Shown: piece by piece, positions 3,909-11,680 of the stretch | Numbering within the stretch: the stretch's first letter is position 1 | Layout: every line of letters begins with the position of its first letter | Source: Aphanizomenon flos-aquae FACHB-1287 | GTDB lineage: Bacteria; Cyanobacteriota; Cyanobacteriia; Cyanobacteriales; Nostocaceae | Reading direction: 5' to 3' | Length of the DNA: 64,000 bases | Assembly (NCBI RefSeq): GCF_014698755.1 | Contig: NZ_JACJTO010000008.1 | Location: 1 to 64,000 of the forward strand | Notes under the pieces: model-generated | Database searches by the model: none | What the model saw: only the letters and a program-made list of their open reading frames with translations | Told to the model about the DNA's origin: nothing | Made by a program: the position numbers and the translations under genes

Positions 3909-4784
3909 ATGATCAATTCTCCAAAAAGCTGGATTTGGCAAGATTTCCCCATTTGTTATCAAACTCAAGGTAATACCGGTCCGGCTGTGATCTTCATTCA
4001 TGGTTTTGGGGCATCATGGTTACATTGGCGCAAAAATATTCCCGCTTTAGCTGCAAATTGCCGGGTTTATGCCATTGATTTAATTGGCTTTGGGGGTTCA
4101 GCTAAACCCAAACCAGGAGAAAAAATTAATTACACTCTAGAAACTTGGGGACAACAAGTAGCAGATTTTTGTCGGGAGGTGGTGGGTGAACCTGCGTTTT
4201 TGGTAGGTAATTCTATTGGTTGTATTGTGGCAATGCAAGCTGCGGTAATTAACCCGGATATGACTTTGGGAACTGCTTTACTTAACTGTTCTTTGCGATT
4301 ATTACATGATCGTAAACGCGTTACGTTACCTTGGGTGAAACGGTTTGGTGCACCAATTCTCCAAAACTTTTTAGCGATTAAACCAGTAGGTGATTTCTTT
4401 TTTCATAGCCTAGCTCAACCGAAAACTGTTAAAAAGATTCTTTTACAAGCTTATGCTAACAGGGAAACGGTAACAGATGAATTAGTAGATATTTTGATGG
4501 CACCGGCAAAAGATGCTGGGGCCGCGGCGGTATTTTTGGCTTTTACTGCTTATTCCAGTGGTCCTTTACCGGAGGATTTATTATCTATAATATCTTGTCC
4601 AGTAATTATTTTATGGGGAACGGCTGACCCTTGGGAACCAATTAATTTAGGTAGAGAATTAGCCAATTTTCCCCAAGTACAAAAGTTTATTTCTTTAGAA
4701 GGTGTGGGACATTGCCCTCAAGATGAAGCTCCTGAGTTAGTAAATCCAATTTTACTTGATTGGATTGGTGAACAATTAAGTTGA
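3909..4784 (+). CDS. Alpha/beta fold hydrolase
   Basis: A 291-residue serine hydrolase-type protein. An oxyanion-hole HGFGASWLHW motif lies near residue 30, the nucleophile elbow GNSIG has Ser102, a likely acid residue lies in WGTADPWEP (about residue 240), and the catalytic His lies in GVGHCPQDEAP near the C-terminus. No signal peptide is seen, so it is probably cytoplasmic. Related cyanobacterial proteins are usually annotated only as alpha/beta hydrolases; substrate unknown. It is transcribed divergently from pyrH and converges on the small-peptide cluster. Confidence 0.88.
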   Translation: MINSPKSWIWQDFPICYQTQGNTGPAVIFIHGFGASWLHWRKNIPALAANCRVYAIDLIGFGGSAKPKPGEKINYTLETWGQQVADFCREVVGEPAFLVGNSIGCIVAMQAAVINPDMTLGTALLNCSLRLLHDRKRVTLPWVKRFGAPILQNFLAIKPVGDFFFHSLAQPKTVKKILLQAYANRETVTDELVDILMAPAKDAGAAAVFLAFTAYSSGPLPEDLLSIISCPVIILWGTADPWEPINLGRELANFPQVQKFISLEGVGHCPQDEAPELVNPILLDWIGEQLS

Positions 4785-4858
4785 AAGAGGGTTAAGAAAT
4801 ATCAGGAAAAATGAACTGTATCCAAGGGTTAATTTGGCTGAAATTTCATCTTTGATTA

Positions 4859-5041
4859 TTACCAGTACCAACCGTGATGTCTGCGTCTGCGTCTGCGTCT
4901 ACGGTCATGACGGTCATGACGGTCATCACGGTTGTTATGATCATTGTGATTTTGATTGTGACCGCCTGATAGAAGCTGCTGTTCTTCTATGGATAACTCT
5001 ACAACTAAATTAGATGTAGATGGGATATTTTGATTTGACAT
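4859..5041 (-). CDS. Double-glycine leader peptide with His/Asp/Arg-rich core
   Basis: A 60-residue precursor-like peptide. The first 27 residues contain a bacteriocin-type leader of the form VELSIEEQQLLSGG; cleavage after GG would release a core of about 33 residues. The core is nearly free of hydrophobic residues: it has Asn/His/Asp, then HDR repeats, eight consecutive Arg and a terminal HHGWYW. The DNA behind this is a simple repeat (tgcgtc hexamers and ggtcatgac nonamers at 4876-4930), suggesting growth by slippage. It is the last gene of the minus-strand peptide/exporter cluster. By family knowledge GG leaders are cut by C39 peptidase exporters. The role of the core is unknown; metal or polyanion binding is only a guess from composition. 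Confidence 0.75.
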   Translation of the reverse strand: MSNQNIPSTSNLVVELSIEEQQLLSGGHNQNHNDHNNRDDRHDRHDRRRRRRRRHHGWYW

Positions 5042-5382
5042 AATAATGTGAAACTCAATTATTTGTTTATTGGTGTTATGACACCTATGCTCATTTTATA
5101 AAGATATTTCTGATCAATTTCATGATTCTATGGTTATAAATTAATAATTATAATTTCTATCCTTTGACATAAGTAGATTGGCGTTAAAAATTATTCTTAT
5201 AGCAAGGTAAGAGTTGTGTTAACCTACTTACTACTGATATAAACTGTCATATTAAAAAATGAGAGAGGAAAAATTTAGACGTAAAATCTATGAAAATTTC
5301 TCCTCACTCTAGAAATAAAAAGCTGAAAACTAGGACTATTGAGAATAGCCAAGTTTATAGACTTTATTGAAAGAAAAAAGTA
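5042..5382. other. AT-rich spacer between two leader-peptide genes
   Basis: About 340 nt without a recognisable gene on either strand. It probably contains the leader region of the 60-residue peptide gene and possibly a promoter for it. I found no further GG-leader reading frame and no clear terminator. Confidence 0.4.
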
Positions 5383-5571
5383 TTAATCCCTATTCCCATT
5401 TTGACCATACATATGATCATTGTCATAGCGTGGATATCGATCATCTTTTTCATAGCAACGTTTTTTAGGTCTACAACAAGGTTGGTAATGGCAACATCCC
5501 CCGGCTAAAAGTTGTTGTTCATCTGAGGATAATTCAACAAGTAAATTGGATTTGATGTTTGGATTTGACAT
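5383..5571 (-). CDS. Double-glycine leader peptide with Cys-rich core
   Basis: A 62-residue peptide starting MSNPNIKSN, with the leader LLVELSSDEQQLLAGG, close to that of the peptide at 4859. After GG the core begins CCHYQPCC and has a fifth Cys a few residues on (KKRC), then an acidic/aromatic Asp-Arg-Tyr tail. Five Cys within the first 15 core residues suggests disulphides, metal binding or modification. No maturation enzyme is encoded next to it. The leader similarity and position just downstream of the C39 exporter make export by that transporter likely. Confidence 0.75.
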   Translation of the reverse strand: MSNPNIKSNLLVELSSDEQQLLAGGCCHYQPCCRPKKRCYEKDDRYPRYDNDHMYGQNGNRD

Positions 5572-5779
5572 AATTATTTACCTGAATAAATAGGTTAGGA
5601 TTTACACGCTCAAATAGAAACAAAAGCTGTGTTAAATCCTATGCTCTATTTATAAATGTATTTTGAGAAAATTAAATTCTCCTGAAGTTATAAATCAAAA
5701 AACTAAAAGTATGAATTATAATTTCATACTTTATGGTAAGATAAATTGTAGTTAATTAAATAATTCACCCATAACTATT

Positions 5780-6106
5780 TTATGAGAAAAAATTATTTAA
5801 ACAGTTAGGTAATGAATTAGTTAATTTATCACTACTGGCAGTAATAGTTAATAGGCTAAATGTGCAATAAAGTGCCATAGTGACTTGGGAAAATTTATAT
5901 TTACTGGTTTGTGAAGTAGAATCACCTGAAGCCAGAGTTAAATCATTTTTTCCTTCAGTTTCGATATCAGTTTTTTGGAAGAGTAACTTACCTTCAGTGA
6001 ATATATCTAACATAGGAGATATTTGCCCACCAACTAAAGATTCTTGTTCAACATCAGAAAGATAGCTCAATAATTGAGAATGATTGAGTTGAGTATTTTT
6101 CGACAT
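5780..6106 (-). CDS. Double-glycine leader protein, 108 aa
   Basis: The leader SQLLSYLSDVEQESLVGG (residues about 10-27) matches the GG-leader pattern of the neighbouring peptides. The putative 81-residue core is longer and includes a hydrophobic stretch (TMALYCTFSLLTI, about residues 76-88) that could span or insert into a membrane, plus two Cys. It lies 68 nt downstream of the ABC exporter gene on the same strand, with a GGAG-type ribosome-binding site before the ATG. Likely an exported substrate; activity unknown. Confidence 0.72.
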   Translation of the reverse strand: MSKNTQLNHSQLLSYLSDVEQESLVGGQISPMLDIFTEGKLLFQKTDIETEGKNDLTLASGDSTSQTSKYKFSQVTMALYCTFSLLTITASSDKLTNSLPNCLNNFFS

Positions 6107-6174
6107 TTTATTACTCCTTTTACAAACAAATAAACTTTGGTGATAGCAGAATAAAAGATTTAAAAAATATTGAT

Positions 6175-8343
6175 TTATGCAGTTAAAAACCGTAAATGCT
6201 CGCCAGGTTTTGATAAAAAAGTATCAGGAGTTCCTTGAACTTGTATTTTACCTTTTTCGATGAAGACAATCCAATTAGCGCGATGAATGACACTGGGACG
6301 ATGGGTAATTAAAATTGTGGTTTTACCTGCGCGATATTCTAAAAGACGATCTAGAACATGAGCTTCACTCATAGGGTCTAATCCGGCGGTAGCTTCATCT
6401 AAAATTAGTATAGGTGGATTTGTGAGAATGCCACGAGCAATGGCTAATCGTTGTCTTTGTCCACCGGAAAGATTCGCACCGAACTCCCCTAAAACAGTTT
6501 GATATTTATTAGGTAATTGACTGATAAAATCATCTGCATCAGCAATATCACAAGCTTGAACTACGGCTTCAAAAGAAATATTAGGTGTGCCTAAACGGAA
6601 GTTTTCCAAAATTGTCCGACTCCAAAAATGAGGTTCTTGGGGTACATAAACTACTTGTTGTCGGTAACAATCTAAAGCAATGTCTTGAATATTTAAAAAA
6701 CCGATGCGAATATTGCCAGAATCTGGTACATATAAACCAGCTAATAATTTAGCTAAAGTGCTTTTACCACAACCTGATTTACCAATTAAAGCAATTACTT
6801 TTCCTCCAGGAATTTGAATAGAAAAATCATCTAATAACTCAACTCTACCTGGGTGATGAAACTTGAGATGGGAACAACTAATATCTGCATGACTAGAAAT
6901 TTGTGCCACTGGTTTTTGACTTCCTCCTACTACTTCTGGTGTGGCATCAATAACTTCTAATAATCGAGAAACTGCGGTTTGAGAACGAAAATATTCATCA
7001 ACAAAGCCAACTAATGAGTTAATTAAAGCTAAAACATTAAGTTGTAAAGCATTAAAAGCTAACATTTGTCCAATACTCAAATTGCCTTTAATGACTAAAA
7101 GACTGCCAAATCCTAATAAAAATACCCCACCAATTGTAGATAAAAGCTTGGCAATAGTCCCGTTAACAATTGCGATTTGAACTGTGCTAAAAGCCAAATT
7201 TGCTAAACGACCAAAACGACTTTGAAATTCATCCCAAAATTGAGGAGCAGCATTGGTGGTTTTCATTACCTGTGCGCCCTTAAATGTTTCTACTAAAATA
7301 CCTTGATTTTCTGCTCCTAAAACTAAGAGACTGCGGGTTTTTTGTTGTAGAATTGGCAAAAAAGGTAAAGTAGATAAAGTCATTAAACCAGCGATTAAAA
7401 TTACTGCCGTTGTTAATTGCCAACTATAAAATAACATTAAGCAAAAAGAAATAACAGCGATAAAAAATTGGCTAGGTAAAACAATGACAATTTGTGATAC
7501 TAATTGATTAATTTCGCCAATATCTCGTAATCGACTAGTAATTTCACCACTGCGACGAGATTCATAATAATTTAAAGGTAATTGCAGAAGTTTTCTACCA
7601 AATTCTAAGACTAAACCTAATTGTAATCTTTGTCCAAAATGAGAAATCATTAAGGCTTGAAATACTTGTAAACCTCCACTAAATAAACTCATAACAACAA
7701 CGGCAGAAACCACAACTGTAAGTAATTGTAAATCTCCACGCACGAGGACATCATCTGTTAATAATTGAATTAAAACCGGACTTCCTAAAGCTAGTATACC
7801 CAGGACAATATTGATCATTAAAACCTGAGTTAGTAAGCCACGATAGGGTAAAATACGACGAAAAAAGCGTGTTATTCCGCCTTTTGATTTTTCTTCAGGT
7901 TGCTCAAAAAAGCGATCTGGATCTGGCTCTAATAGGAGCATTACACCATTCCAGGCCTCAGTTAATTCTTGTTTACTAAGATAACGAAGTCCAATAGCAG
8001 GATCAGCAATAACGTATTTTTTCCCTTTTTTACCATATAAAACAACCCAATGATAGCCCTTCCAATGGATGATTGCAGGTAATGTAATTTCTGTGATTCT
8101 ATCTATAACTTCTGGAGAAGCTTTGACTGCTCTAGCATTAAAACCGAGATTTTCTGAGCCGCGTTTTAAACCTAATAATGTTGTTCCTAATTGTCCAGTA
8201 CCAACAGATTCTCGACTTTTAATAATACTTAAAAATCTTCCGTAGTGCTTGGTAATAGAAACTAGACAAGCTGCTCCACAGTCTTCTTCACTTAATTGTA
8301 AAGTACACTGATAATTGTGACGATTTTTAAAAAAATTGAACAT
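6175..8343 (-). CDS. C39-peptidase ABC exporter for GG-leader peptides
   Basis: A 722-residue inner-membrane half-transporter that should remove GG leaders and export the cores. The N-terminal C39 peptidase has the QLSEEDCGAACL box with catalytic Cys22, a His in GYHWVVLYG near residue 97 and an Asp in VIADPAIGL. A six-helix ABC transmembrane domain follows from about residue 165 to 450. The C-terminal ATPase has Walker A GKSGCGKST, the signature LSGGQRQR, Walker B ILILDEAT and a switch His in ITHRPS. It lies between the HlyD gene (117 nt upstream) and three GG-leader genes downstream, all minus strand. Confidence 0.93.
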   Translation of the reverse strand: MFNFFKNRHNYQCTLQLSEEDCGAACLVSITKHYGRFLSIIKSRESVGTGQLGTTLLGLKRGSENLGFNARAVKASPEVIDRITEITLPAIIHWKGYHWVVLYGKKGKKYVIADPAIGLRYLSKQELTEAWNGVMLLLEPDPDRFFEQPEEKSKGGITRFFRRILPYRGLLTQVLMINIVLGILALGSPVLIQLLTDDVLVRGDLQLLTVVVSAVVVMSLFSGGLQVFQALMISHFGQRLQLGLVLEFGRKLLQLPLNYYESRRSGEITSRLRDIGEINQLVSQIVIVLPSQFFIAVISFCLMLFYSWQLTTAVILIAGLMTLSTLPFLPILQQKTRSLLVLGAENQGILVETFKGAQVMKTTNAAPQFWDEFQSRFGRLANLAFSTVQIAIVNGTIAKLLSTIGGVFLLGFGSLLVIKGNLSIGQMLAFNALQLNVLALINSLVGFVDEYFRSQTAVSRLLEVIDATPEVVGGSQKPVAQISSHADISCSHLKFHHPGRVELLDDFSIQIPGGKVIALIGKSGCGKSTLAKLLAGLYVPDSGNIRIGFLNIQDIALDCYRQQVVYVPQEPHFWSRTILENFRLGTPNISFEAVVQACDIADADDFISQLPNKYQTVLGEFGANLSGGQRQRLAIARGILTNPPILILDEATAGLDPMSEAHVLDRLLEYRAGKTTILITHRPSVIHRANWIVFIEKGKIQVQGTPDTFLSKPGEHLRFLTA

Positions 8344-8460
8344 ATTAAACGTAATTATTAAGAAAGATTAGTTGGTTTAACATAAATAAGCACAATTTTA
8401 TTAAAGCTTTTATTTGATGATTCTGTTGCTTAACTTAAGCTACAATTTTGAGAAATTTAT

Positions 8461-9972
8461 TCAATTATAGTTAGTAATTAATTTGCTTTTTCTGAGGATA
8501 AACTGCATTACAGTTTCCTGTTGGGAAATAATATCAGCACGTCCTTCCATACCAGATTTGAGATAACATAAACGATCTCCTTTTCCTAAAAATAGATTTT
8601 GTGGGTCAATATTGATTTCATAAGTAGCTAGTTGGGGAGTGCTGATAATATAATTATTTTGTGTAGTTGCGATAACATCTGGTGCAATTGTTTTCACAGT
8701 TCCTTTGAGAGTTCCATAGTCTGGATAGGGACAAGATGAAACCTGCATTTGTACTGCTTGACCGATTTTTATTTTATCAATATCTTTAGCAGAAACGTGA
8801 GCTTTAATGATTAAAGGAGCATCCACAGGAGCAATTTGAGCTAGAGCTTCACTGACTTGCACAACCTGTCCAGAATTGCGGAGTTTAAGCTGCATCAGTG
8901 TACCTTTAGTTGGAGAACGAATCACACTTTTATTCAATTCATTTTCTAGCTGTTGTAGTTCTTGACCAGTGCGAATCTGTTGTTTTTGTAGTTCTAGACG
9001 TTGCTGAATTAATAGTTCCCGTTCTTTTTTTAAAGCTGCTAAATTGCCATCACCTCTTGCTTTTTCTTGATTAATTCTTTCTAAAGCTACTGTGACATTG
9101 GCATTACTAGGATTAATACCAATTTTTGCTTTTTGTAAGTTAATTTGTGCTAATTTAACAGCTTGTTCTTTTTCTTCTTGGAGATTTCTAGCATTAGATT
9201 TAGCTTGTTCTAATTTGGCTTGAGCCGATGTAACAGCCTGTTCTTTTTCCTCCATTAAATTCTGAGATATTGCTCCTGATGTCACTATATTTTGCAAGCG
9301 ATCACGCTGTGAAATTGCTAATTTTAAAGCTGCTTCTGCTTCTTGTAATGAGGCTATTAATACTTTTTCTTTTTGTAATCTTTCTAATTGATTCTTGGCT
9401 AAATTTATAGTTATTTTAGCTTGTGTCATTTCCGTACCAGTTTTAATTTGCTGATCTTGATAGTTGCGTTTCGTTCCAGTTAATTCAGCCCGTGCAGCTA
9501 GAATTGTCCGCTCATTTAAGTTAGTCTGAGCAATTATTTGAGTATTAATTTCATTAATTTGAGCATCAATTTGAAGAAGTTGTAATTTACTTTGTTGAAT
9601 AGTATTTTGCAGTTGTTTTTTCTGAGATTGGAATTGAGAGTCATCAAGATAGGCAATTACTTCTCCCTTATTTACTATCTGATTTTCTTTAGCTGCAATT
9701 TTTTTGACAGTTCCTGTTATGGCAGATTCAACTAACCGTAATTCTCCTAATGGTCGGATAGTTGCGGGAACTTTGACTGTGACATTGTAATAGAGAACAG
9801 AGGAAAGACTTATAGCTACCACAAACATACCAATCATTACTCCCCCACCAATATGAATCCATTTACCAATATGGGGGAGAAACTCATTAGCCTCTAATAT
9901 ATGTAAATCCTCTGAATTAGGATTATCGAAGTTATACAAATAATTCTGATCTTCACTCTGTAACGAGTTCAC
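8461..9972 (-). CDS. HlyD-family membrane fusion protein
   Basis: A 503-residue adaptor for a peptide exporter. One membrane helix at about residues 43-65 follows a 40-residue cytoplasmic tail. A split biotinyl/lipoyl-like domain comes next (VPATIRPLGELRLVES near residue 70), then a long coiled coil at about residues 110-335 rich in Gln, Lys and Glu, then the returning lipoyl half (VIRSPTKGTLMQLKLRNSGQVV) and a beta-barrel region. By analogy with HlyD/MFP proteins it links the inner-membrane C39 exporter to an outer-membrane channel, probably a TolC homologue encoded elsewhere. Gene order is leader peptide, HlyD, exporter, leader peptides. Confidence 0.92.
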   Translation of the reverse strand: MNSLQSEDQNYLYNFDNPNSEDLHILEANEFLPHIGKWIHIGGGVMIGMFVVAISLSSVLYYNVTVKVPATIRPLGELRLVESAITGTVKKIAAKENQIVNKGEVIAYLDDSQFQSQKKQLQNTIQQSKLQLLQIDAQINEINTQIIAQTNLNERTILAARAELTGTKRNYQDQQIKTGTEMTQAKITINLAKNQLERLQKEKVLIASLQEAEAALKLAISQRDRLQNIVTSGAISQNLMEEKEQAVTSAQAKLEQAKSNARNLQEEKEQAVKLAQINLQKAKIGINPSNANVTVALERINQEKARGDGNLAALKKERELLIQQRLELQKQQIRTGQELQQLENELNKSVIRSPTKGTLMQLKLRNSGQVVQVSEALAQIAPVDAPLIIKAHVSAKDIDKIKIGQAVQMQVSSCPYPDYGTLKGTVKTIAPDVIATTQNNYIISTPQLATYEINIDPQNLFLGKGDRLCYLKSGMEGRADIISQQETVMQFILRKSKLITNYN

Positions 9973-10317
9973 TGTATTATACCTTTTGTTATGACTAAAA
10001 TAGTCTCACCCAAGATGGAAATTACCAATATTATGTAACCAAAAAATAACTATCTTAGGTAATAAATTGACAGAAATAAAAACAAGTAAATTTCTTTATT
10101 TACACTATGAAAATCAATTGGATTATAGGTTAAATTCATGTAAAAGAGGTATTGACTAGCATGGCAGAGCAGTGAAAATAAGCAACCATTAAACTTCCAT
10201 AAAAAGCTAGTGTAATTTACTTTTTTAGGTTTAAATTCCTGATTTTCAGTGTCACTCTGCAGAACTAGTACAATACCGCTTTACAATTGAGCAACTTATA
10301 GGCAGATTAGCCCCTGT
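9973..10317. other. Spacer upstream of the HlyD gene
   Basis: About 345 nt between the first leader-peptide gene and the HlyD gene. I see no convincing reading frame. It may hold a promoter for the HlyD/exporter genes or a partial terminator for the upstream peptide gene, but no clear hairpin plus T-run was found. Confidence 0.35.
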
Positions 10318-10674
10318 TTACGCAAGAATTGTCGCACTGCCGGCTCCCGTTGGTAAAGGTGTTCCAGCTACTAGAGGTATTGCCCGTGGACTTCCTTCAG
10401 TTGGTAAAGTTGCTTGACCCAAAGCCCCTACACCCGCAGGAGGTTCTGCACCTAAGCCTAAGAAATCCTGTCCCGCAGTCAGGATAGTATTAGCCTTACC
10501 TGCGGAGGTGGCGCTGCTACCTTGAGGACCAGAGACACTGGTTCCCATTAAAAGAGATCCTTTGTTAGCATAGTTACTAGCTGCTAGTTCAAAGTCAGCC
10601 CCACCAGTCACTATCTCTTGTTGTTGATCTGATAAAGCAACCAATAAATCTGATCCGTTGATTTGATTTAACAC
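10318..10674 (-). CDS. Double-glycine leader peptide with Gly/Ser/Ala-rich core
   Basis: The first gene of the peptide export cluster. I place the start at the GTG at 10674, nine bases after a GAGG ribosome-binding site. An upstream GTG would put that site inside the coding region. The 118-residue product has the leader DLLVALSDQQQEIVTGG, then a core of about 90 residues made mostly of Gly, Ala, Ser, Thr and Pro without Cys. The core is far from typical compact bacteriocins and could be a structural or surface peptide. The leader agrees with those of the three peptides 4-6 kb downstream, so the four probably share the C39 exporter. Confidence 0.75.
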   Translation of the reverse strand: MLNQINGSDLLVALSDQQQEIVTGGADFELAASNYANKGSLLMGTSVSGPQGSSATSAGKANTILTAGQDFLGLGAEPPAGVGALGQATLPTEGSPRAIPLVAGTPLPTGAGSATILA

Positions 10675-10966
10675 GATTATTAGCCTCACTTATTTAACTA
10701 GGTATTTAATCACCTAACAACTTAACTATAAGCATGGTTGGCTAATAATTCATAAACCTACAGGTAGAAAGTAAAGTTTCTAAATTTACCTCTAAGAGTA
10801 GAGATAAAATAGCTTTGAATTAATAAAATTATATTATTAAAGAATTAATTTCAGTGCAATAGAGTCTACACAATATTTATCTTTTTTCCGTTACAGTCAA
10901 GCCAAAAGATGCTACGGTAATAACCTAAAATTAAAGGTAAAGTAAAAAATCCATATTAGGAATTAT

Positions 10967-11680
10967 TCAATAACTAGAGAGAATTTGAGTTAATAAATAA
11001 GCACAGGTAGCACTACCTATAGGAACTGTTAAATTATCAATTCCCAAAAAAGAAAAAGCTTCTAAAATCGTAGCAATTAAAGCGACAATTAAGGAGATTA
11101 TCCAAGTTTGCCAAATATTTCCCTGGACAATAAATAAAAGAGTTACACAAATAAAATAACTACTTAAAGTTACCGTTAAAGAACCTTCCCAACTTTTTTG
11201 AGAACCAAAAACTATATATTTGTGTTTACCAAAACGTTTACCAATTAAAGCAGCTAATCCATCACCCCAAGCCATAATCATAATTCCTAAAACAGCATAT
11301 TGAGGTTGGTGTAAATACCAAAAAATACCCATTAAAACCCCTATACTCACAGCATAGAAAAATGTCCCCAGACTCTGACGACCCACACTATTAATACCAG
11401 GAAGAATGGGGAATTTATAGGATAATAAAGTGATAAGACTCGCAAAAACTGAAGCCGTAATTCCTACATAAGCAGGAATATCTAACCACCAAGCAATTAA
11501 AATCACATTACCCATGCCAATATGCACGATTTTACGGATGATTTCCGCCTCACTATCAGTAAAACGATATACCACCCAAGCAATAAAGATAATTAATCCT
11601 ACCCAAACCGCTGCAGGGGCAATTTGCAGGGATAATGGAGAAATGGTTTCCAAGCTGAGAAATGTGTTAAACAATGTCAA
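10967..11680 (-). CDS. Phytol kinase-like polyprenol/DAG kinase family membrane protein
   Basis: A 237-residue integral membrane protein with six to seven hydrophobic segments. It keeps the CTP-dependent kinase family (SEC59/DGK1/VTE5) motifs: [12 protein letters not shown] near residue 70, [18 protein letters not shown] at about residue 140 and QKSWEGSL shortly after. In plants and cyanobacteria this group includes the phytol kinase that recycles phytol to phytyl phosphate for tocopherol. Substrate assignment is by family only. The apparent start is a TTG at 11680, and the divergent yidD frame begins within a few bases of it; the true start could be slightly internal. Confidence 0.82.

What the first reader, a model, noticed from the sequence alone, without database searches (positions are those of the whole stretch)
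4859..10674. Double-glycine peptide export cluster with four unlike cores
Four small proteins share a leader ending L-S-x-x-(E/Q)-Q-x-x-(L/I/V)-x-GG and lie around a C39-peptidase ABC exporter and an HlyD adaptor, all minus strand. The cores are unrelated: Arg/His/Asp repeats, a Cys-rich peptide, an 81-residue partly hydrophobic protein and a Gly/Ala/Ser-rich chain. C39 exporters cut GG leaders by family knowledge. No maturation enzyme such as LanM or a radical SAM protein is encoded here, so the products may be unmodified or processed in trans. One exporter with four dissimilar cargoes is an unusual secretome.
Basis: partly seen in the sequence, partly recalled or inferred. Interest (0 to 1): 0.75.

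Follow-up and report, generated by a model that had tools for sequence, protein, structure and literature searches.

The report
Cyanobacterial exporter locus with swappable cargo
A bloom-type cyanobacterium carries a known kind of protein-export locus whose small cargo genes share an export tag, and three of them a control region, but differ in the exported part; unlike cargoes are normal for this family, while for the shared control hairpin I found no description.

Summary
Four minus-strand small proteins share a double-glycine leader around a C39-peptidase ABC exporter and an HlyD adaptor. It is not an unusual secretome: it fits the group III cyanobacterial GG-precursor clusters (Wang 2011: 3.89 precursors per cluster), and cargo 4 is a CTB-family member (NF038167, 73.4 bits). 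In 57 orthologous loci plus the window the cores show order. Upstream, 79 of 84 cargoes share one core family; directly after the exporter a second conserved core occurs in 20 of 58 loci; the other 137 cores fall into 78 BLAST clusters. DNA identity between variable genes with unlike cores falls from 0.66-0.75 in the leader to 0.29 right after GG. New here: cargo genes 1, 2 and 4, not the exporter, carry a -10-like box, a covarying hairpin and an SD-like site; in the 4.35-Mb genome the model finds only these three at E<1. Both conserved cores are predicted as long beta-hairpins. Closest functional precedent: PteB/EbfG1-4 of Synechococcus elongatus (exporter 55% identical; biofilm proteins, three amyloid-forming), but the cores are not detectably homologous. 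Most likely an export locus for surface or matrix proteins; bacteriocins are the main rival. Function is untested.

The parts
4859..5041 (-). Cargo 1, 60 aa: leader 4961-5041, core 4862-4960 (33 aa, net charge +6, 7 His, C-terminal GWYW); last cassette of the array
   Evidence: (singleton core)
5039..5103 (-). 5' element of cargo 1 (TATAAA, GGTGT-CATA-ACACC hairpin, weak SD, ATG)
   Evidence: 33 bits, E 0.05; z -1.07
5383..5571 (-). Cargo 2, 62 aa: leader 5497-5571, Cys-rich core 5386-5496; core cluster 5, with relatives in 6 other loci
5569..5657 (-). 5' element of cargo 2, with a longer hairpin (UAGGAUUUA...UAAAUCCUA) and a weak SD
   Evidence: 38.5 bits, E 0.004; z -4.44
5780..6106 (-). Cargo 3 (class B), 108 aa: leader 6026-6106, core 5783-6025; conserved core right after the exporter, predicted long beta-hairpin; no 5' element found
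6175..8343 (-). C39-peptidase ABC exporter (short type), 722 aa
8461..9972 (-). HlyD-family periplasmic adaptor, 503 aa, GTG start
10318..10674 (-). Cargo 4 (class A, CTB family): leader 10600-10674, core 10321-10599, predicted beta-hairpin plus low-confidence tail
   Evidence: (73.4 bits, cut-off 32)
10672..10733 (-). 5' element of cargo 4 (CTTATAGTT -10-like box, TTAGGT...ACCTAG hairpin, GTGAGG SD, GTG)
   Evidence: 62.8 bits, E 5.1e-8; z 0.13

Best explanation
A type I (PCAT/HlyD) export locus for a set of small extracellular proteins. Inferred from family knowledge: the C39 domain cuts each precursor after GG while the ABC part, the HlyD adaptor and a TolC-type outer-membrane protein encoded elsewhere move the core out of the cell. 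Shown by comparison: the leader, and for class A and the variable genes the control region, are conserved, while the cores follow three regimes: conserved class A upstream, conserved class B just after the exporter, hypervariable cores further on. So the locus looks like an array of gene cassettes (promoter-like box, 5' hairpin, SD, leader, exchangeable core). Inferred, less certain: the products are surface, sheath or biofilm-matrix material rather than classical bacteriocins. Rough split: export and cleavage 0.85, cassette organisation 0.8, surface/matrix role 0.4.
For: C39, ABC membrane and ABC ATPase domains, catalytic residues, HlyD, OEP/TolC-type matches elsewhere in the genome. 237 leader-bearing precursors in 58 loci, 229 of the 233 outside the window on the exporter's strand; class A, class B and variable regimes. 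DNA identity 0.66-0.75 over the last 25 leader codons against 0.28-0.32 after GG, 496 pairs with unlike cores. 5' element: 34 compensatory cells against 14.0 in shuffles (0 of 500 reach it), 84.9% of cells paired against at most 43.8% when slid; in the own genome only the three cargo genes at E<1 (these three are in the training set); 27 of 32 held-out hits at E<=0.01 lie at a precursor start. Last variable core: aromatic residue within the last three in 36 of 42, against 21 of 74 other variable cores. Exporter 55% identical to a PteB-like protein; PteB and EbfG1-4 enable biofilm and EbfG1-3 form amyloid (PMC4997328, PMC9981879). Long beta-hairpins predicted for classes A and B.
Against: EbfG cores and the class A/B cores show no detectable homology (hhalign probability 0.1% in each of three comparisons), so the biofilm analogy rests on exporter and architecture only. 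Class A is named 'bacteriocin' by NCBIfam, and a CTB operon of Nodularia is induced by phosphate depletion, which says nothing about matrix. Of eight 5' regions folded, three have z<=-2; the window's are 0.13, -1.07 and -4.44. Only 20 of 41 related genomes show the element at E<=0.01. No expression or secretion data for this strain were found. AF2 pTM is only 0.43-0.45.
Confidence: 0.6

Rival explanations
1. The cores are bacteriocins or allelopathic peptides; hypervariable cores reflect an arms race and the conserved ones are helper or self-protection proteins.
For: NCBIfam name 'CTB family bacteriocin'; Wang 2011 interprets such clusters as bacteriocins; hypervariability beside a conserved leader fits an arms race.
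Against: The only functional precedent that I read, with a 55%-identical exporter, is biofilm. Variable cores are rich in Gly, charged and aromatic residues. None of the eight proteins searched between 3909 and 11680 matched an immunity family, but immunity genes were not searched for specifically.
Confidence: 0.3
2. The conserved class A and B cores are beta-hairpin subunits that assemble into membrane pores.
For: AF2 long hairpins; the best, non-significant Foldseek hits include hairpins of pore-forming toxins such as the lysenin pore, E 0.048.
Against: No hit at E<=0.001 in either search; TM-scores by query length stay below 0.5 in the rows shown, and any long hairpin would pick such targets. 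Read by eye, one face of the class B hairpin carries charges, which does not suit lipid.
Confidence: 0.07
3. A sub-question: the palindrome is a DNA operator at the transcription start bound by a repressor, not an RNA hairpin.
For: AGGTG/CACCT itself is highly conserved; five of eight regions fold with z above -2.
Against: Loop length varies from 3 to 8 bases in the 56 of 72 sequences where a stem was found, awkward for a rigid dimer site; stems change by compensation.
Confidence: 0.35
4. The variable ORFs are chance or decaying ORFs with leader remnants.
For: Some cassettes are broken: five element hits before interrupted or leaderless frames; Cuspidothrix L022 locus.
Against: Leader-bearing ORFs with SD and promoter-like box recur in 58 loci; codon positions 1 and 2 are more conserved than position 3 over the 20 codons before GG. 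The precursors were chosen by their leader, so leader conservation alone proves little.
Confidence: 0.03

Closest known systems
Group III cyanobacterial bacteriocin (GG-precursor) gene clusters, Wang, Fewer and Sivonen 2011 (PMC3140520; parts 1-3 of 5 read)
   Same: Short-type C39 ABC exporter, HlyD, several GG precursors with little core conservation, no LanM and no second ABC transporter seen beside it
   Different: The parts of the paper I read do not mention a shared 5' element, positional core classes or the DNA boundary at GG
CTB family bacteriocin, NCBIfam NF038167
   Same: Cargo 4 scores 73.4 bits (cut-off 32)
   Different: Cargoes 1-3 score 27, 23.6 and 13.2, below cut-off, mainly over the leader
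PteB / EbfG1-4 biofilm system of Synechococcus elongatus PCC 7942 (PMC4997328 part 1 of 5; PMC9981879 part 1 of 6 and passages)
   Same: Exporter 55% identical over residues 10-720 of the query; four small GG or GA cargoes beside it
   Different: The leader HMM finds EbfG4 (E 0.002 and 0.013) but not EbfG1-3; no core homology; HlyD downstream of the exporter, not upstream; no 5' element
Prochlorosins and other RiPPs with a conserved leader and variable core (recalled principle)
   Same: Conserved leader, hypervariable core
   Different: No LanC-like protein found in this genome

Membership tests
PCAT (C39-peptidase ABC exporters) | N-terminal C39 domain with Cys/His/Asp and oxyanion Gln (roles recalled), followed by ABC membrane and ATPase domains | tested here: met
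Group III cyanobacterial GG-precursor cluster | Short-type C39 exporter plus HlyD, several GG precursors, no LanM and no peptidase-less second ABC transporter beside it | tested here: met
   (neighbours checked by Pfam from 3909 to 11680); definition. No placement in Wang's tree was made
CTB family bacteriocin NF038167 | Cargo 4 above the curated cut-off (32 bits) | tested here: met
   73.4 bits
CTB family bacteriocin NF038167 | Cargoes 1, 2 and 3 above the curated cut-off | tested here: not met
   27, 23.6 and 13.2 bits
PteB/EbfG biofilm system | Exporter homologous to PteB | tested here: met
   55% identity, E 2.6e-265.
PteB/EbfG biofilm system | Mature cargo homologous to EbfG1-4 | tested here: not met
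   class A against EbfG1-3 and EbfG4, class B against EbfG1-3; class B against EbfG4 and the variable cores were not compared; few EbfG sequences, so low power
PteB/EbfG biofilm system | Needed for biofilm | not testable with these tools
   needs mutants
Class II lanthipeptide (LanM) cluster | LanC-like cyclase | tested here: not met
   PF05147 not found in own genome at E<=0.01
Known Rfam RNA family | 5' element matches a family | tested here: not met
   in 4800-10800 only one sub-threshold hit, elsewhere (6847-6914)

The most novel reading that the evidence does not exclude
The locus is a modular cassette array for making new extracellular proteins. Each variable cassette carries its own promoter, a hairpin at the mRNA 5' end, an SD and an export leader, so any open frame that lands after GG is at once expressed and exported. 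Cores at the last position keep a composition (basic, Gly/aromatic/Arg-rich, aromatic C-terminus) without alignable sequence, while two conserved beta-hairpin proteins act as the fixed scaffold of a cell-surface or matrix material.
Probability: 0.3. Interest if true: 0.75.

Novelty: new variant of a known kind. Interest (0 to 1): 0.45.

Why it matters
GG-precursor clusters occurred in 43 of 58 cyanobacterial genomes in the 2011 survey, and among the papers I read function has been shown for one set (EbfG). The comparison here says which parts look constrained (leader, 5' element, two core families) and which are free, gives a concrete element to mutate, and offers a natural case of core replacement behind a fixed export tag. 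If the matrix reading is right, it would name structural proteins of bloom-forming filaments.

Tried and rejected
Considered and dropped: (1) 'unusual secretome', because multi-cargo clusters are the norm. (2) Recent cassette copying within a locus: codon identity at shared leader residues is 0.60 within and 0.58 between loci for genes with unlike cores, against 0.49 expected from exporter codon usage (the 0.59 observed there also includes pairs with like cores), so no sign of recent homogenisation. (3) Charge pairing of acidic first and basic last cores as a general rule: only 13 of 42 loci have first<0<last. (4) Homology of class A or B to EbfG, or to each other (negative). (5) Pfam and NCBIfam for class B cores: no family matches more than 1 of 24 members. 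(6) PDB sequence search with the class B profile: none at E<=1. (7) The same 5' element in the C5 cluster, two S. elongatus-like loci and four distant loci: none at E<=10. (8) Not done: phage, plasmid, viral and metagenome collections; PHROGs and PADLOC libraries; radical SAM or other modifying enzymes; specific immunity genes. Papers: seven of ten searches were made; in the listings, which are capped, no title or abstract start pointed to the 5' element; only open-licence papers are held, and I opened no hit (apart from PMC3140520, opened earlier).
Full report
What is there. The window lies on contig C78 of an unnamed 4.35-Mb, 85-contig genome. The nearest named loci (exporter 90-93% identical) are labelled Anabaena, Dolichospermum, Cuspidothrix, Trichormus or uncultured, so it belongs to that clade by inference. 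The four leaders are real: a motif scan of window ORFs finds exactly these four (a second, mis-registered looser pattern there found one other ORF and none of the four), Markov sequences give 0 or 1, and a leader HMM trained without the window finds the four at E<=5.7e-6 with the next at 0.56.

Machinery. The 722-aa exporter has C39, ABC membrane and ABC ATPase domains, Gln16, Cys22, His98 and Asp114 (their catalytic role is recalled family knowledge) and a full-length match to the solved PCAT1 (4RY2, residues 9-712, E 1.6e-111). The 503-aa neighbour is HlyD-like. OEP/TolC-type matches lie elsewhere in the genome: 5 matches on 3 contigs. No LanC-like protein was found in the genome, so lanthionine formation in trans is unlikely; other modifying enzymes were not searched.

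Known kind. Wang, Fewer and Sivonen 2011 (parts 1-3 of 5 read) classified such clusters. Group III has the short-type exporter without the extra ABC transporter, with 74 precursors in 19 clusters (3.89 each); [quoted passage not shown] S. elongatus PCC 7942 has one group III cluster. NCBIfam calls cargo 4 a CTB family bacteriocin (73.4 bits, cut-off 32); the other three stay below cut-off. The genome has a second, paralogous cluster on C5 (exporter 62% identical; a CTB protein of 43.9 bits and a class B-like cargo).

Order among the cores. From 80 named loci I kept the 57 with exporter identity of 71% or more, plus the window. They hold 237 leader-bearing precursors with cores of at least 8 residues; 53 of the 57 loci have at least two. 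Outside the window, 229 of 233 are on the exporter's strand. BLAST clustering of cores alone (E<1e-4, coverage 40%) gives 80 clusters, 61 of them singletons. Of the 84 upstream cargoes, 79 fall in one family (class A, 80 members in 41 loci with the window's cargo 4). Class B, with the window's cargo 3, has 20 members in 20 loci, all downstream; more distant relatives sit right after exporters in five other loci and in the C5 cluster (Gln17 and Gln47 invariant in the 24 sequences aligned). The other 137 cores form 78 clusters. The window's Cys-rich cargo 2 has relatives in 6 other loci. Cargo 1 is a singleton by BLAST but fits the last position: in the 42 loci with two or more variable cassettes, 36 last cores have an aromatic residue within the last three (21 of 74 for the other variable cores; Fisher p 1.9e-9, not corrected for relatedness), 35 of 42 are basic (40 of 74) and 30 of 42 have 20% Gly or more (17 of 74).

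Boundary at GG. In 13 loci of the window's clade (33 variable genes, counting one cut-short class A gene), gapless DNA comparison of 496 pairs with cores in different clusters gives 0.66-0.75 identity across the last 25 leader codons and 0.28-0.32 from the first core codon on, in windows of five codons. Positions 1 and 2 exceed position 3 over the 20 codons nearest GG. Codon identity at shared residues is 0.60 within and 0.58 between loci against 0.49 expected from exporter codon usage, which points to long-standing constraint, not recent copying.

A shared 5' element (new in this analysis). Class A and many variable genes, but not class B, have upstream a -10-like box, a hairpin of the type TAGGTG-loop-CACCTA and a GTGAGG-like site before the start. 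On 72 sequences the seven-pair stem has 84.9% paired cells (slid controls at most 43.8%), 34 cells with compensatory change (shuffles 14.0, 0 of 500 reach it) and 6 pairs with a two-sided change (shuffles 3.7, 19 of 500 reach it). Relatedness can inflate the shuffle test. A simple stem search found the stem in 56 of the 72, with loops of 3 to 8 bases. A covariance model finds in the own genome only the three cargo genes of this cluster at E<1 (5.1e-8, 0.004, 0.05; next 7.48; 150 of 4568 first-look candidates scored); these three were in the training set. In 29 named loci and the window, 66 hits reach E<=0.01; 32 do not overlap training sequences, and 27 of these lie at a precursor start, the other five lying upstream of the exporter before interrupted or leaderless frames. 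In 41 genomes, 20 have hits at E<=0.01; comparing with the exporter places by eye, 33 of the 37 hits lie within a few kb of the exporter on the same contig, two are on another contig of a fragmented genome and two elsewhere. No hit was found before the window's exporter, HlyD or class B gene, nor in the C5 cluster or the S. elongatus-like loci. No Rfam family matches. Whether it acts as RNA or as operator is open: of eight regions folded, three have z<=-2; the window's are 0.13, -1.07 and -4.44; variable loop length favours RNA.

What the cargoes may be. AlphaFold2 predicts the class B core as a hairpin of two strands of 22 and 21 residues (block pLDDT 92-94 in residues 21-50) and the class A core as a hairpin of two 16-residue strands (block pLDDT 80-88 up to residue 60) with a low-confidence tail; pTM 0.43-0.45. 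Foldseek gives no match at E<=0.001; among the top ones are long hairpins of pore-forming toxins, expected for any long hairpin. PMC4997328 (part 1 of 5 read) shows that EbfG1-4 and the PteB cysteine matter for biofilm and secretion; PMC9981879 (part 1 of 6 and passages) reports EbfG4 at the surface and in the matrix and amyloid formation by EbfG1-3. The mature EbfG cores are not detectably homologous to class A, nor EbfG1-3 to class B. In Nodularia one CTB operon is induced under phosphate depletion and a second bacteriocin cluster is not (PMC9846622, passages). PMC9679502 (passages) only lists CTB genes in genome comparisons.

Verdict. The locus fits a known kind, with a feature that I did not see in the papers read or in the capped listings: a cargo-specific 5' element, not found before the exporter genes, that with the leader makes a variable gene look like a self-contained export cassette. 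The matrix/surface role is the likeliest function but is an inference by analogy.

Noticed in passing
L127:1250-9060 (G000:C5, minus strand): Second C39/HlyD cluster in the same genome with a CTB protein and a class B-like cargo, followed by what look by eye like a response regulator (2220-2897) and a histidine-kinase-like gene (1250-2143); no 5' element found there.
   Followed up: partly
L128:4932-7638 (G000:C15): A C39 exporter whose open frame ends after 439 aa, near small GG ORFs on the other strand, one resembling a class II bacteriocin by eye (IWPWVVAAAVYVINHW core, 6681-6857).
   Followed up: no
L017:12034-12222, L019:11983-12192, L025:11992-12159, L029:11349-11513 (minus strand): Single cassettes inverted relative to the rest of the array; the first three share a core family.
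   Followed up: no
L022 (Cuspidothrix issatschenkoi): Orthologous exporter kept, but class A is cut short after ADFELAARR and no downstream cassette was found: probably a decaying array.
   Followed up: no
L072, L080, L081, L082, L086, L127: Class B relatives with a Q-x-T ... Q pattern right after other exporters, so class B looks like an old partner of the exporter family; Pfam and NCBIfam scans gave no family shared by the members.
   Followed up: partly
L027:6084, L052:5517, L061:4779, L066:4707, L071:5177: Copies of the 5' element in front of interrupted or leaderless frames upstream of the exporter, as if the cargo gene had decayed or moved.
   Followed up: partly
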